Origin: Pyrinomonadaceae bacterium
Lineage (GTDB): Bacteria; Acidobacteriota; Blastocatellia; Pyrinomonadales; Pyrinomonadaceae
Reading direction: 5' to 3'
Assembly (NCBI GenBank): GCA_030841105.1
Contig: JAVEDE010000095.1
Location: 124,001-188,000 of the forward strand
Length of the DNA: 64,000 bases
The notes under the pieces were generated by a model. The model was given only the letters and a program-made list of their open reading frames with translations. It was not told the origin of the DNA and did not search any database. Made by a program: the position numbers and the translations under genes. This document shows, one piece after another, positions 9,403 through 61,708 of the stretch (the first letter of the stretch is position 1; the number at the start of each line of letters is the position of its first letter).

Positions 9403-11867
9403 TAACTCAGCGTTGAAGGATGAACGCGGAACGATGAACTGACCGCCGACTCATCGTTCGTCGTCCCGCGTTCATCATTAGCTCTCTGCGGTTCGTCCGT
9501 GACGGGGATTTCGACGAGGAACTTCGCGCCGCGCGGGCGGTTGGGTTCGGCGCGGATGCGCCCGCCGTGTTCGTTGACGATGCGCTGGACGATGGCGAGG
9601 CCGAGACCCGTGCCGCGCCCGCGCGTGGAAAAGTAGGGTTGGAAGAGACGCGAGAAGTCGGAGCGTTCGATGCCGTGGCCGGTGTCGCCGATCTCGACGA
9701 GGAGCATGCCGCGCGAGGGGTCGTGGCCGGTGGCGACGGTGATGCGCCGCTCGCCCGCAGGGGCGTCGGCCATCGCTTCGAGCGCGTTGTCAATCAGGTT
9801 GACGATGGCGCGGCGCATCTGCTCCGAGTCGAGCATGCCGGGCGGGAGCGTGCGCGCGAGGTGAACGTCGAGACGCACGTCTTCGAGTCGATCTTCGTAG
9901 AGCGCGACCGCCTGCCTCACCACCTCGTTCAAGTCGGCCGCTTCGAGCCGCGCGTGCGGCAGCCGCGCGAAGCGCGAGAACTCGTCAACCATCGCTTTCA
10001 AGCCCGCCACCTCGCGCGTGATCGTCGTCGTACATTCCTCGACCACCTGCGCCACGCGCGACACCTCGCCGCGCTCCGGTTCGACTCCGAGTTCGTTGAC
10101 CTCGCCGCCGTTCGGACTAAACGCGCCGCCGCTTGCGTTCGCCGTCTCGCCGCCGGCGTTCGCCACGCCGCCGTTCGACGGACTCTCGATGTTGTTGTCG
10201 CCCGCGCCGAACACGCGTCGGAAGTTGCGCGCGATGCGTTCGGCCGAAAGCTGGATGGGCGTCAGAGGATTTTTGATCTCGTGCGCCATGCGGCGCGCGA
10301 CCTCGCTCCACGCGGCGGCGCGTTGGGCGGCGAGCAATTCCGTCAAGTCTTCGATGACGAGCACGATACCGCGCGAGGAGCGTCCGCCCGCGCCGCCCTC
10401 GGTGAAATTGCCGAGCGCGGTGGCCGTGAGCGCGACGGGCAACACGCCGCCGTCGGCCGACGCACCGCGCGCCAGTTCCATCTGCCACGCCGCGCGCCCC
10501 GTCCGCCGCGCGCGCGCGAGCACGCCTTCGAGCACGAGATGATCTTCCACGCCGAGCATCCCCTTGAGCGGCGCGCCCGGCGCGGGCACTTCGCCGAGCC
10601 GGAGCATGAGCACGGCGGCGGCGTTGATGGTCGTCACGCGGTTCTCTTCATCGAGCGAGACGACGCCGGTCGAGAGCGATTCGAGCACGGTCTCGATGTA
10701 GTTGCGCCGCTCATCGAGCGCGAGGTTCTTGTCGCGGAGTTCGCCCGCGCCCGCTTCGATCCGTCGGCGGTTCTCTTCCAGTTGCGCGGTCATCTGGTTG
10801 AAAGAGGCGGCGAGGATGGCGAGTTCGTCGTCGGCGATGGTCGTCACGCGATGTGCGAGATTGCCGCGCGCCACCTCATCGGCCGCTTCGGCGAGCGCGC
10901 GGATGGGCGCGCCGATGCCGCGCGCGAGGTGGATCGCGCTCCACGTCGCCGCGAAGAGTAGCATCAGCGTCAGCAGGCCGAGCGTCGAGAGACCGAGCAG
11001 GCGAACTTTACGTTGACGCAGTTTGAAGTTCTCGAACGTCTGGCTGCTCATGACGAGTTCGGCGAGTTGCGGGTCGGCGCGACGTTCGCGCGCGGCGACG
11101 AGCGTGTGCAGACCGCCGACGGGCAGTTCCGTCACGTCGAACACACGGCCGCCGATGTTGATCTCGCCCTGCGTGTCGCCGCGCTCGCGCACAGCTCGGA
11201 CGCCGCTCAGGATCGCGTCCGCGTCGCCCGGTCGCAGGCCGCGCGTCGCCGTCTGGAAATCCGCGAGGCCGCCGACGGAGAGCAGAGACAAATTGCCGCG
11301 TTCGGCCAGTTCGTCGAGTTTGGGTTTGAGGTCATCGGCGGGCTGCGGTTCAGGCAACAGGCTGTGCGTGACGGCGACCGTCGCACGGAAACTCTCCGAC
11401 TCGCGCCGCGCCTCGTTCTTCTCTACCTCGCGCGCCTGCTGCATGACGCTTTCGGGCAAACTGCTGAACCACTTTTCGAGCGAGCGGTTGAAGAAGATGT
11501 AGGAGAAAACCGCCATCGCCGTGATCGGCAGCAGGCTCACGGTGATGAAGTAGACGACGAGCCGCGTCTTGATCTTCGAGCCGAGTTCGTGCGCGCGCCG
11601 CTCGCGTCGGAGTTTGACGAGGTTGCGCACGAAGATGAAGGTGAAGACGATGAAGGCGACGAAGTTGAGCGACGAGAGCGCGTAGAGCAGCAGCGTGTCG
11701 GCGGCCGTGTCGGGCGTGAAGACTTCCCACAGCCCGAAGACCTGCAAGGCGATGAGCACGAACAGCAGCGAGAGCACGAGGCCGCCGAGCAACCACGGCG
11801 CGCTGCGTCGTTTGGCCTTCAACTCGCCCGCCGCTTCCGGCGTCTGTTCGTTGGGTTCGTCAGTCAT
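9402..11867 (-). CDS. NtrY-like membrane sensor histidine kinase
   Basis: About 821 residues. Two N-terminal membrane segments, a third near the start of the sensor region, an extracytoplasmic region, a fourth membrane segment, HAMP (PIRALAEAADEVARGNLAHR), PAS, then histidine kinase with H-box RRMAHEIKNPLTPIQ and ATPase boxes LIDNALEAM, GDTGHGI, GRGTGLGL. A stretch of about 45 Asn/Gly/Ser-rich residues is inserted between the two helices of the dimerisation domain, right after the H-box helix. The C-terminal 25 residues are encoded by an intergenic-type repeat (9414-9476). The ATG at 11867 is preferred to longer starts, which would overlap the divergent gene at 11999. Confidence 0.9.
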   Translation of the reverse strand: MTDEPNEQTPEAAGELKAKRRSAPWLLGGLVLSLLFVLIALQVFGLWEVFTPDTAADTLLLYALSSLNFVAFIVFTFIFVRNLVKLRRERRAHELGSKIKTRLVVYFITVSLLPITAMAVFSYIFFNRSLEKWFSSLPESVMQQAREVEKNEARRESESFRATVAVTHSLLPEPQPADDLKPKLDELAERGNLSLLSVGGLADFQTATRGLRPGDADAILSGVRAVRERGDTQGEINIGGRVFDVTELPVGGLHTLVAARERRADPQLAELVMSSQTFENFKLRQRKVRLLGLSTLGLLTLMLLFAATWSAIHLARGIGAPIRALAEAADEVARGNLAHRVTTIADDELAILAASFNQMTAQLEENRRRIEAGAGELRDKNLALDERRNYIETVLESLSTGVVSLDEENRVTTINAAAVLMLRLGEVPAPGAPLKGMLGVEDHLVLEGVLARARRTGRAAWQMELARGASADGGVLPVALTATALGNFTEGGAGGRSSRGIVLVIEDLTELLAAQRAAAWSEVARRMAHEIKNPLTPIQLSAERIARNFRRVFGAGDNNIESPSNGGVANAGGETANASGGAFSPNGGEVNELGVEPERGEVSRVAQVVEECTTTITREVAGLKAMVDEFSRFARLPHARLEAADLNEVVRQAVALYEDRLEDVRLDVHLARTLPPGMLDSEQMRRAIVNLIDNALEAMADAPAGERRITVATGHDPSRGMLLVEIGDTGHGIERSDFSRLFQPYFSTRGRGTGLGLAIVQRIVNEHGGRIRAEPNRPRGAKFLVEIPVTDEPQRANDERGTTNDESAVSSSFRVHPSTLS
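9414..9476. repeat. Imperfect inverted repeat, GATGAACGCGG family, inside the 3' end of the kinase gene
   Basis: ATGAACGCGGAACGATGA is answered by TCATCGTTCGTCGTCCCG and CGCGTTCATCAT. Same unit family as 22621-22734 and 51598-51700. It lies inside the reading frame and encodes the low-complexity C-terminal tail. Confidence 0.75.
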
Positions 11868-11998
11868 CACGTTCGCGGGGACAGAGTTTAGCACGCCCGG
11901 CGCGCGCCGGGGCACTGCGCCTCTCACCACACGCGCGCGGTTTCGGTTACAATCGGCGGCGACTTGCCCGATCCACCGCACGCGAACGCCGTCAACAC

Positions 11999-12973
11999 AT
12001 GAACCCACTCGACATTTTTCTCAACCGCCAACGCCGACTACGCAGCGGTTGGCGACTCATAATCTTCTGCGCCGTCTACTACACCGCGCTCGCCGCGTTC
12101 TTCTCAACCGTCAGGACGTTCATTTTCCTGTCCGGCAAAAACCCCGACCAGTTGCTCTCCGGGACGCCCGGCTACATCGTGCAAGCCTTCGTACTCTTCA
12201 CGACCGCGCTCGTCGTCGGCTGGGGCTGCGGCCGCCTGTTTGAAGACTTGCCGCTGCGCGCTCTCGGCTGGACGCTTCACCGCGGCTGGCTGCGCGATCT
12301 ACTGATCGGCACACTGCTCGGCGTGGTGTCGCTCATGCTCGCCGCGCTTGTGGCGACTGTGCTCGGCGGCTACAATTTCGGCGTCGCATCGTCAATCTCG
12401 AACGTCGCATTCTTAAAAACTTTCTTCGGCTCGGCGTTCATCTTCGTGATCGCGGCCGCCGCCGAAGAGATGCTGTTTCGCGGCTACCCCTTGCAGACGA
12501 TGATGCGCGCGCTGCCCTTTCTCGCGGCGGTAGTGCCCTCGTCCGTCCTGTTCGCCTGCGTGCATCTCGACAACCCGAACGTCGCGTGGGGCTTCACCTT
12601 CATCAACACGACGCTCGCCGGGTTCTGGCTCGCGGTCGCCTACCTGCGCACGCGCAGCCTGTGGTTTCCGCTCGGCCTCCACTGGGCTTGGAACTGGGCG
12701 ATGGGCGCGCTGCTCGGCCTGCCCGTCAGTGGCATCACGAGCCTGACGCGCGCGCCGCTCCTGCACGCCACCGACACAGGCCCCGCGTGGCTCACCGGCG
12801 GCGCATACGGCATCGAAGGCGGCGTGGCCTGCACCGTCGCACTCATCATCTCAACGATCTTTATCTGGAAGACGACTCTGCTGAAGGCGGATGTAGAGTT
12901 GAAGCAATTTACCGACGGTGAGATGCCGGAGAGAGTGACGATAAGACAGTCACAAGTGACGGGTGACAAGTAA
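11999..12973 (+). CDS. CPBP-family intramembrane metalloprotease
   Basis: A 324-residue multi-spanning membrane protein with the CPBP (CAAX protease/bacteriocin-processing) motifs: EEMLFRG (EExxxR), FACVH (FxxxH) and HWAWNW (HxxxN). Homologues cleave prenylated or peptide substrates or serve in self-immunity; the substrate here is unknown. About 7-8 hydrophobic segments are visible. The last residues (QVTGDK) and the TAA stop are formed by the GTGAC repeat that follows. It is divergent from the NtrY-like kinase and convergent with citrate synthase. Confidence 0.88.
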   Translation: MNPLDIFLNRQRRLRSGWRLIIFCAVYYTALAAFFSTVRTFIFLSGKNPDQLLSGTPGYIVQAFVLFTTALVVGWGCGRLFEDLPLRALGWTLHRGWLRDLLIGTLLGVVSLMLAALVATVLGGYNFGVASSISNVAFLKTFFGSAFIFVIAAAAEEMLFRGYPLQTMMRALPFLAAVVPSSVLFACVHLDNPNVAWGFTFINTTLAGFWLAVAYLRTRSLWFPLGLHWAWNWAMGALLGLPVSGITSLTRAPLLHATDTGPAWLTGGAYGIEGGVACTVALIISTIFIWKTTLLKADVELKQFTDGEMPERVTIRQSQVTGDK

Positions 12974-61507: not shown

Positions 61508-61593
61508 ACGCACACCCCCACACTGTTCTCTGGTCTGTCTGGCTCAATTTCCTTCGGGAGACAAATCGGAACTTACAACAACGGCGGGCAAAT

Positions 61594-61708
61594 GTAAAAA
61601 GGGGAAAGGCGAAGGGGTAAAGGGGAAGGGGCAAGGGGTAAAGGTAAGACGAGGAACGGAACAGCTTTCGGTTTCCCTTTCCCCCTTACCCTTTTCCCTT
61701 TCCCCTTA
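61594..61708. repeat. Inverted repeat, GGGGTAAAGGGG family
   Basis: AAAAAGGGGAAAGGCGAAGG and GGTAAAGGGGAAGGGGCAAG (61596-61646) face TTTCCCTTTCCCCCTTACCC and TTTTCCCTTTCCCC (61672-61706). Fills the gap between the Fur gene stop (61712) and the ferredoxin start. Same family as 15288-15399. Confidence 0.85.

What the first reader, a model, noticed from the sequence alone, without database searches (positions are those of the whole stretch)
9414..61708. A multi-family system of iterated-oligomer palindromes fills the gaps between genes
About seventeen gaps hold 7-12 bp units repeated in tandem and usually mirrored as inverted repeats. At least six unit families occur, each at two or more places far apart: GTGAC(A/G)AG (12951, 14309, 26750, 30832, 32490), GTTTCA(G/A) (18056, 28007), GGGGTAAAG (15288, 61594), GTTGTCCGT (16721, 55525), AACGATGAAC (9414, 22621, 51598), GTAAATC (14350, 32530). 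Stems are long: perfect 27 bp (12973/13030), perfect 30 bp (22658/22734), 29 of 32, 28 of 31, 27 of 29, 24 of 28. In the five imperfect stems that I counted (16736, 18058, 28980, 30833, 32490), all 13 mismatches are transitions and 9 are G-U pairs on the plus strand, in which the flanking genes run. Cyanobacterial STRRs are the closest known analogue (established knowledge); different unrelated units built on the same plan suggest one generating mechanism.
Basis: partly seen in the sequence, partly recalled or inferred. Interest (0 to 1): 0.78.

Follow-up and report, generated by a model that had tools for sequence, protein, structure and literature searches.

The report
Interchangeable hairpins at gene ends
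This bacterium carries several unrelated families of DNA hairpins built from repeated seven-letter words, mostly just after stop codons, and in its close relatives the same spots nearly always still hold such a hairpin, but often one of a different family.

Summary
The window (unnamed Pyrinomonadaceae-like genome, G000) has about 15 gaps with tandem 7-mers (some 8-mers), mostly as long hairpins; ten Markov controls gave none. The main doublet, GTGACRR twice, has 1,367 matches genome-wide but 37 in a congener (G002), where GTTTCAR and GTRAATC lead. Members are dispersed ~80-150 bp elements with family-typical tips. Between co-directional genes they abut the stop codon (median 3 nt; closer to stop than start 51:16).

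New point: within the genus, sites stay occupied (21 of 22 against G002, 18 of 19 against G001) while the family was exchanged at 8 and 3 of them. Nested two-family hairpins and remnants outside the new element suggest replacement from the centre outward. Against: gap H, outside these counts, has no hairpin in G001, and in other genera occupancy is patchy (4 of 16 comparisons at gaps J, K, L).

Y1 transposases were not found in G000 or G001, against classical REP/RAYT. Best reading: REP-like stop-codon hairpins whose place outlasts their sequence. New variant of a known kind; function inferred.

The parts
9414..9479 (.). Gap A: GATGAAC-type hairpin (arms 9416-9439/9456-9479), at the called 3' end of the minus-strand gene 9402-11915
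   Evidence: G002 has a GTCAGCC hairpin here; inside a gene call, so not in the orthologue counts
12948..13041 (.). Gap B: GTGACRR hairpin between convergent genes
   Evidence: same family in G001, GTRAATC in G002
14309..14376 (.). Gap C: single arms, GTGACRR then GTRAATC
   Evidence: GTGACRR arm kept in G001 and G002
15288..15397 (.). Gap D: GGGGWAA hairpin from stop codon to start codon
   Evidence: GTTTCAR in G001 and G002, GATGAAC type in G026
16721..16822 (.). Gap E: GTCMGTT arrays and stem in a divergent gap
   Evidence: same family in G001 and G002
18058..18139 (.). Gap F: GTTTCAR hairpin
   Evidence: same family in G001 and G002
22654..22738 (.). Gap H: long hairpin with GATGAAC words and weak iteration
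   Evidence: not homologous in G001, where no hairpin was found
26750..26781 (+). Gap I: single GTGACRR arm in a divergent gap
   Evidence: other families in G027, G026, G014
28006..28116 (.). Gap J: GTTTCAR hairpin
   Evidence: GAGTCTA-type hairpins in G008 and G014, none in G027
28980..29060 (.). Gap K: CGCAAAGG (8-mer) hairpin
   Evidence: decayed in G002
30832..30917 (.). Gap L: GTGACRR hairpin
   Evidence: GTRAATC type with a GTGAC remnant in G002
32486..32701 (.). Gap M: composite, GTGACRR arms outside, GTRAATC arms inside
   Evidence: composite in G001, eroded outer arms in G002
51598..51699 (.). Gap P: GATGAAC-type arrays
   Evidence: GTCMGTT hairpin with a GATGAAC remnant in G001, same family in G002
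55529..55655 (.). Gap Q: GTCMGTT arrays
   Evidence: same family in G001 and G002
61598..61707 (.). Gap R: GGGGWAA hairpin
   Evidence: same family in G001 and G002

Best explanation
Shown: the gaps hold members of at least seven families (eight in the sampled genome) of short dispersed elements, about 80-150 bp, usually an imperfect hairpin whose arms are tandem 7-mers (one family 8-mers), with tips typical of the family in the three families I listed. Between co-directional genes the hairpin begins at the stop codon of the upstream gene. Shown: within the genus, sites stay occupied while the occupying family is often exchanged. Inferred: what is kept is a long, sequence-unspecific hairpin at the stop codon, working as REPs within 15 nt of a stop codon are reported to work, by stalling ribosomes at termination and so tuning the upstream message. 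Inferred: families are exchanged because a new element settles in the centre of an old one, makes its arms redundant, and the old arms decay. The agent that copies the elements is unknown.
For: Stop-side median 3 nt against 10 nt on the start side; closer to the stop in 51, to the start in 16, one tie; 52 of 68 within -30 to +15 nt of the stop, 37 of 68 of the start. Occupied in both: 21 of 22 sites against G002 and 18 of 19 against G001, with 8 and 3 families exchanged (automated table plus my reading of the 12 one-genome calls). Eight fully nested GTGAC-outer/GTRAATC-inner hairpins (two of them orthologous), none the other way. Old-family remnants outside the new element at gap L in G002 and gap P in G001, and short GTGAC-like feet around a GTRAATC element at C14:19516 in G002. 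Elements with arms and tip recur elsewhere, the best at 90-96% over about 80 bp. RNA energy of the sense strand, median -44.6 kcal/mol. REP position and stalling: PMC3733652 section, PMC12306157 passages.
Against: Gap H is outside the counts and has no hairpin in G001. In other genera occupancy is patchy: 4 of 16 comparisons at gaps J, K and L show a hairpin. No G-U over A-C preference on the sense strand (83 v 71); sense is the more stable strand in only 32 of 68. Among 443 paired positions compared between G000 and G001, 50 changed on one side, 7 on both sides with pairing restored, 6 on both without; 7 is somewhat above the one or so I would expect by chance, but one-sided change dominates. 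Unit cores are more conserved than pairing needs, which hints at recognition of sequence. Two window sites are single arms. Seven of 88 elements lie in divergent gaps; the deficit is not significant (p=0.10). Composites match many places nearly whole, so centre insertion may be rare or single.
Confidence: 0.45

Rival explanations
1. Neutral or selfish dispersed elements. They are copied by an unknown agent, prefer (or survive only in) the harmless space behind stop codons and the centres of older hairpins, and do nothing for the host.
For: Species-specific bursts (GTGACRR 1367, 1069, 37 matches in G000, G001, G002), nested elements, no RNA-level constraint, patchy occupancy across genera. [quoted passage not shown]
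Against: Within the genus, exchanged sites (8 and 3) outnumber one-sided sites (1 and 1), where simple gain and loss would leave many empty.
Confidence: 0.33
2. Local growth of heptamer repeats by replication slippage and template switching, each array made in place (STRR-like), without copying of elements.
For: Period 7 dominates (28 of 54 arrays); indels of one unit between relatives; PMC4692102 cites a slippage idea for heptamers (section read).
Against: Arms and tip recur together elsewhere in the genomes; fixed polarity of 7-mer families; wholesale change of family with aligned flanks.
Confidence: 0.08
3. Ordinary intrinsic terminators that happen to be repetitive.
For: Convergent and co-directional gaps, close to stop codons.
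Against: T-rich 10 nt after the stem in 12 of 68 co-directional and 0 of 26 convergent cases; but plain hairpins rarely show it either (3 of 32 and 0 of 30), so the test is weak.
Confidence: 0.08
4. Classical REPs moved by a RAYT/Y1 transposase.
For: Same location as REPs; Y1 transposases in 47 of 60 relatives.
Against: No Y1_Tnp match in G000 (89% complete) or G001 (83% complete), which have the most GTGACRR matches of the 60; no shared foot motif seen in 37 listed rows.
Confidence: 0.04
5. Assembly or binning artefact.
For: All three genomes are fragmented; two G001 contig ends fall at these hairpins.
Against: Both flanks are syntenic at exchanged sites and three independent assemblies carry such elements.
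Confidence: 0.02

Closest known systems
REP / BIME / REPIN elements
   Same: Dispersed extragenic palindromes, species-specific classes, mostly between uni- and convergently transcribed genes, close to or supplying stop codons (PMC3733652 abstract and one section); insertion of REPINs into existing REPINs (PMC3116915 passages); different REP classes beside orthologous RAYT genes (PMC3686654 passages).
   Different: Arms are tandem 7-mers; no foot tetranucleotide seen; no Y1 transposase found in G000/G001; exchange happens at ordinary gene ends, not beside a transposase gene.
G-rich heptamer repeats GGGAATC / GGGGA(C/T)T of Xanthomonas and Nostoc (PMC4692102, abstract and four sections)
   Same: Heptamers, some as inverted pairs, preferably between aligned genes, near or over stop codons; 83% of the repeats of one Xanthomonas in the same context in another.
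   Different: One G-rich family per organism with a preference for four units; exchange for another family is not described in the sections I read.
TAACTGA heptamer direct repeats of Beggiatoaceae, cyanobacteria, Bacteroidetes (PMC4679880, abstract and one section)
   Same: Heptamers, intergenic, patchy across phyla, other heptamers mixed in; indels of 7 nt between strains.
   Different: Mostly direct repeats just upstream of start codons in the Beggiatoaceae.
Cyanobacterial STRRs (recalled; three heptanucleotides of Calothrix mentioned in PMC4692102)
   Same: Several different heptanucleotide units in one genome.
   Different: I reached no description of paired arms, tips or site exchange for them.

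Membership tests
REP (GTAG/CGTC superfamilies) | GTAG or CGTC motif at one foot of the palindrome | tested here: not met
   12-nt flanks of 37 listed rows (three repeat a place) of three families show no shared tetranucleotide, judged by eye
REP (GTAG/CGTC superfamilies) | RAYT (Y1) transposase in the genome (GTAG class) | tested here: not met
   PF01797: 0 in G000, 0 in G001, 2 in G002; drafts incomplete; CGTC REPs are said to lack one
REP (GTAG/CGTC superfamilies) | Uni- or convergent gaps, near stop codons | tested here: met
   81 of 88 in such gaps (background 297 of 342, divergent deficit p=0.10); stop-side median 3 nt
STRR / heptamer repeats | Tandem heptanucleotides between genes | tested here: met
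   28 of 54 perfect arrays in 275 kb have period 7; Markov control 0 of 18
STRR / heptamer repeats | Arrays grown in place rather than copied as a longer element (my criterion, recalled) | tested here: not met
   Arms and tip recur together, best at 90-96%
Intrinsic terminator | T-run directly after the stem | tested here: inconclusive
   12 of 68 and 0 of 26 for iterated, 3 of 32 and 0 of 30 for plain hairpins
MITE / transposon-mobilised repeat | Target-site duplication | tested here: inconclusive
   None seen by eye at two one-sided sites; boundaries blurred
RNA hairpin under selection | G-U tolerated over A-C on the transcribed strand | tested here: not met
   83 v 71, p=0.38
RNA hairpin under selection | Compensatory change | tested here: inconclusive
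   7 restored, 6 unrestored double and 50 single changes among 443 pairs in 16 hairpins, at least three of them plain; alignments with half or fewer pairs unchanged were dropped
RNA hairpin under selection | Transcribed and active at the stop codon | not testable with these tools
   needs RNA or ribosome data

The most novel reading that the evidence does not exclude
The hairpin at a stop codon is an inherited place whose sequence is interchangeable. The cell keeps a long hairpin there while unrelated 7-mer element families compete for the place and replace each other from the centre outward. The same 7-mer vocabulary with the same arm polarity recurs in other phyla, which would make this a widespread, unnamed class of bacterial 3'-end elements.
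Probability: 0.3. Interest if true: 0.78.

Novelty: new variant of a known kind. Interest (0 to 1): 0.6.

Why it matters
If place and structure are selected while sequence is free, methods based on sequence conservation miss such elements. The exchanged sites give ready-made pairs (same gene, same place, different hairpin family) for testing what a hairpin at a stop codon does, and the nested forms a series for finding how elements are copied. The fixed arm polarity, and the rigid unit cores with one or two mixed A/G positions, are unexplained.

Tried and rejected
RNA wobble selection: not supported. Mirrored copying of arms: not supported in 10 GTGAC and 6 GTTTCA elements. RAYT mobilisation: no Y1 match in G000 or G001. 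Terminators: few T-runs, but a weak test. Stop codons supplied in all frames by the arms: dropped by reasoning, since GTTTCAR left arms hold none. Known RNA families: only a tRNA in the window. Tip orientation against gene direction: six pattern tests all lean the same way (pooled 36 antisense, 15 sense; overlapping counts, small, not followed up).

Differential loss from a composite ancestor could explain the GTGAC to GTRAATC exchanges (5 of 8 in G002). Against it, simple GTGAC elements of G000 at four of these sites have GTTAAA/GTTGAA...TTTAAC or similar tips that the composites I read lack; the other exchanges involve family pairs for which I saw no composite, except the GATGAAC remnant beside GTCMGTT at gap P. 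This rival route is not excluded.

Control on plain hairpins: 13 comparisons at 10 sites, 10 homologous, 3 not (sites 82, 117, 149). Leaving out 37, 82 and 159, which are iterated or belong to the system, 5 of 7 sites are homologous; site 117 also changed its hairpin and site 149 lost it. The control is small and not clean.

Family exchange at ordinary orthologous gene ends was not found in the listings of my nine answered literature searches nor in the sections and passages read; most subscription papers are not held.
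Full report
What the window is. The window is G000:C48:124001-188000 of an unnamed 5.07-Mb genome in 128 contigs, 64% G+C. 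A record titled Pyrinomonadaceae bacterium BP_15 matches it at 95.4% over 3,545 bp (L071 against G000 C7), so I place it in or near that family. Two relatives of the same genus were used, G001 (97% identical over gene 28117-28959) and G002 (88%), and six genera of the same family. Genes were called with my own codon-usage script, so gene ends are approximate. Flanking genes by Pfam include an Rce1-like protease and citrate synthase around gap B, a SAM hydroxide adenosyltransferase at gap D, a TrkA-type channel and an epimerase around gap J, and glycosyltransferase family 9 and PfkB proteins at gaps K to M.

The scan found 12 stems of score at least 16 in the window and none in ten order-2 Markov sequences; eight belong to the reported system, four are plain. 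Among perfect arrays of at least 2.5 copies with period 5 to 15, period 7 has 28 of 54 in 275 kb of G000, 11 of 22 in 87 kb of G001, 21 of 46 in 188 kb of G002, and 0 of 18 in Markov-3 sequence. In the whole genome GTGACAAGTGACAAG has 99 forward and 81 reverse matches, its reversed control none.

Unit grammar. In-phase units have a rigid core and one or two mixed purine positions: GTGAC, then A/G (101 A, 59 G), then A/G (136 A, 25 G) in 161 units; GTTTCA then A/G (52 A, 50 G) in 102 units; GT, A/G (35 A, 53 G), AATC in 89 units. Units were accepted with at most one deviation, which inflates core conservation. In 10 GTGAC and 6 GTTTCA elements the states in one arm do not match those in the other better than shuffles; 5 GTRAATC elements gave 0.667 against 0.579 (203 of 500 shuffles reach it).

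Dispersed elements, polarity and tips. Searching 20-kb stretches of G000 against G001 and G002 returned, besides orthologues, dozens of hits of 80-150 bp whose query is one hairpin, arms and tip together; identities run from about 70% to 96%, the best at 90-96% over about 80 bp (lists capped). Typical tips are GTTAAAG...TTTAAC for GTGAC and GTGAATAGA...TCTATTCAC for GTRAATC. Two-arm clusters have one polarity: GTGAC 33 of 33, GTTTCA 25 of 25, GTRAATC 16 of 16, GGGGWAA 10 of 10, GTCMGTT 6 of 6, GATGAAC 3 of 3, GAGGGAT 2 of 2; CGCAAAGG is mixed, 3 against 4 (a few places are counted twice, since L002/L003 overlap and L008 lies in L163). Titles of two-arm loci include Bacteroidales, Chloroflexi, Latescibacterota and Thermomicrobiales besides Acidobacteria (the output was cut).

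Place. In 550 kb of the three genomes there are 88 iterated intergenic hairpins: 68 between co-directional genes, 13 convergent, 7 divergent, against 255, 42 and 45 gaps of 50 bp or more; the divergent deficit is not significant (p=0.10). In co-directional gaps the stem starts a median 3 nt from the stop codon and ends a median 10 nt from the next start; it is closer to the stop in 51 and to the start in 16 (p=2e-5). In 26 of 68 it overlaps the called end of the gene.

Exchange at orthologous sites within the genus. Of 177 G000 gaps, 62 could be matched in G001 and 70 in G002. Against G001 the script gives 12 same family, 2 different, 5 called in one genome only, 43 neither. Reading the five: one real one-sided site (C48:155920, a CGCAAAGG hairpin in G001 only), one exchange missed by the threshold (C48:175592, gap P), three same-family. 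So 18 sites are occupied in both, 3 of them exchanged. Against G002: 7 same, 8 different, 7 called in one genome only, 48 neither. Reading the seven: one real one-sided site (C48:177672, G002 only) and six occupied in both, of which C14:16455 is a composite in G000 and G001 but only the inner family in G002. So 21 are occupied in both, 8 exchanged. The script needs two iterated arms, so single-arm gaps (C, I) and gap H fall under neither; at gap H the G000 hairpin has no counterpart in G001, which speaks against my reading. Gap A (GATGAAC to GTCAGCC in G002) lies inside a gene call and is not counted either.

The exchanges. In G002: GTGAC to GAGGGAT (C48:88767), GTCMGTT to GAGCAGT (C48:101695), GGGGWAA to GTTTCAR (gap D), and GTGAC to GTRAATC at five sites (C48:100088, gap B, gap L, C14:15525, C14:19516). 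In G001: gap D, C39:6094 (GTTTCAR to GTCMGTT) and gap P (GATGAAC to GTCMGTT). Flanks align up to or near the stems, for example 46 nt on the left and 39 on the right at C39:6094; at three of 26 ends examined (exchanged and one-sided sites) my simple walk returned 0 because the flank ends mismatched.

Other genera. The same gaps hold further families: gap I has GTGAC, GTACTGA, GTRAATC and GAGTTTT arrays, gap J GTTTCAR and GAGTCTA. But occupancy is patchy: at gaps J, K and L a hairpin was scored in 2 of 5, 2 of 6 and 0 of 5 genomes of other genera. Site keeping is therefore shown within the genus only.

Genome-wide flip. Doublet matches in G000, G001, G002 are 1367, 1069, 37 for GTGACRR, 184, 281, 510 for GTTTCAR, and 143, 119, 277 for GTRAATC. 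Of 60 genomes, the window's own included, 36, 21 and 27 have at least one match.

How exchange may happen. Mixed clusters include eight complete nestings, all GTGAC outside and GTRAATC inside (two of them orthologous), and one GGGGWAA hairpin with GATGAAC inside. Remnants of an old family lie outside the new element at gap L in G002 (left) and gap P in G001 (right); at C14:19516 in G002 short GTGAC-like feet frame the new element. This suggests entry at the centre and decay of the outer arms. Against a simple version, the composite matches many places in G001 nearly whole and may travel as a unit. REPINs are reported to insert into or next to existing ones (PMC3116915 passage), and different REP classes flank orthologous RAYT genes (PMC3686654 passages), so nesting and class exchange have precedents in another setting.

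Function. The location is that of REPs (PMC3733652, section read), and REPs within 15 nt of a stop codon are reported to stall ribosomes (PMC12306157 passages citing Liang et al. 2015; that paper not read). 52 of 68 co-directional elements lie within -30 to +15 nt of the stop, 37 of 68 within the same distance of the start. RNA-level evidence is negative or mixed: G-U 83 against A-C 71 on the sense strand, sense more stable in 32 of 68, 7 restored against 50 one-sided changes among 443 pairs. With stems of about 30 nt such mismatches may be tolerated; that is inference. T-runs are rare in iterated and in plain hairpins. PF01797 was not found in G000 or G001, both incomplete drafts.

Verdict. 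The features are real, abundant, REP-like in place and STRR-like in their units, and fail a defining test of each. Exchange of family at a kept site within the genus is the new and testable point. Function and the copying agent are inferred or unknown.

Noticed in passing
window 3803-3843, 19247-19283, 44349-44401: Plain hairpins in convergent gaps that stay homologous in relatives; at 44349 both arms changed together in G001 (AACAACAGG to AACAACACG). A useful contrast to the iterated ones.
   Followed up: partly
L151, C48:194234-194373 (outside the window): A plain 30-nt hairpin in a convergent gap is replaced in G002 by a different, longer hairpin sharing little but its foot; hairpin exchange may not be limited to iterated elements.
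   Followed up: no
tips of GTGAC, GTTTCA, GTRAATC and GAGGGAT elements in G000-G002: Six tip patterns all lean to one orientation against gene direction (pooled 36 antisense, 15 sense, overlapping counts).
   Followed up: no
GTGAC, GTTTCA and GTRAATC arrays: Units behave like a two-letter code: rigid core and one or two mixed A/G positions, independent between arms in the elements tested.
   Followed up: partly
window 28980-29060 and relatives: The 8-mer CGCAAAGG family has no fixed arm polarity (3 against 4), unlike the 7-mer families.
   Followed up: no
G018 and G004 (control columns): The reversed control pattern GRRCAGTGRRCAGTG is itself abundant in G018 (90/89) and G004 (29/54), so another 7-mer family is common there.
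   Followed up: no
L106 4342-4540: A Bacteroidales contig has GTGAC arms around ATTTACG words, the same two families as the composites here but with the inner one in the other polarity.
   Followed up: no
L135 about 9900-10490 (G001 gap H): In place of the 22654 hairpin G001 has an array of longer imperfect repeats with CTGTAAATT- and ACTTTCAC-like words.
   Followed up: no
window 42701-43122 and 46905-47644: Long gaps without iterated units that align between species (42701 in G001 and G002, 46905 in G001); possibly regulatory.
   Followed up: no
L148 3717-10209 (C48:63717-70209, outside the window): A 6.5-kb stretch without confident genes in my codon model and without an Rfam match; nature unknown.
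   Followed up: partly
window 62349-62431: tRNA gene, the only Rfam match in the window.
   Followed up: no
G001:C165 end, G001:C236 start: These contigs end at the hairpins of gaps L and P, so the elements probably break short-read assemblies.
   Followed up: no
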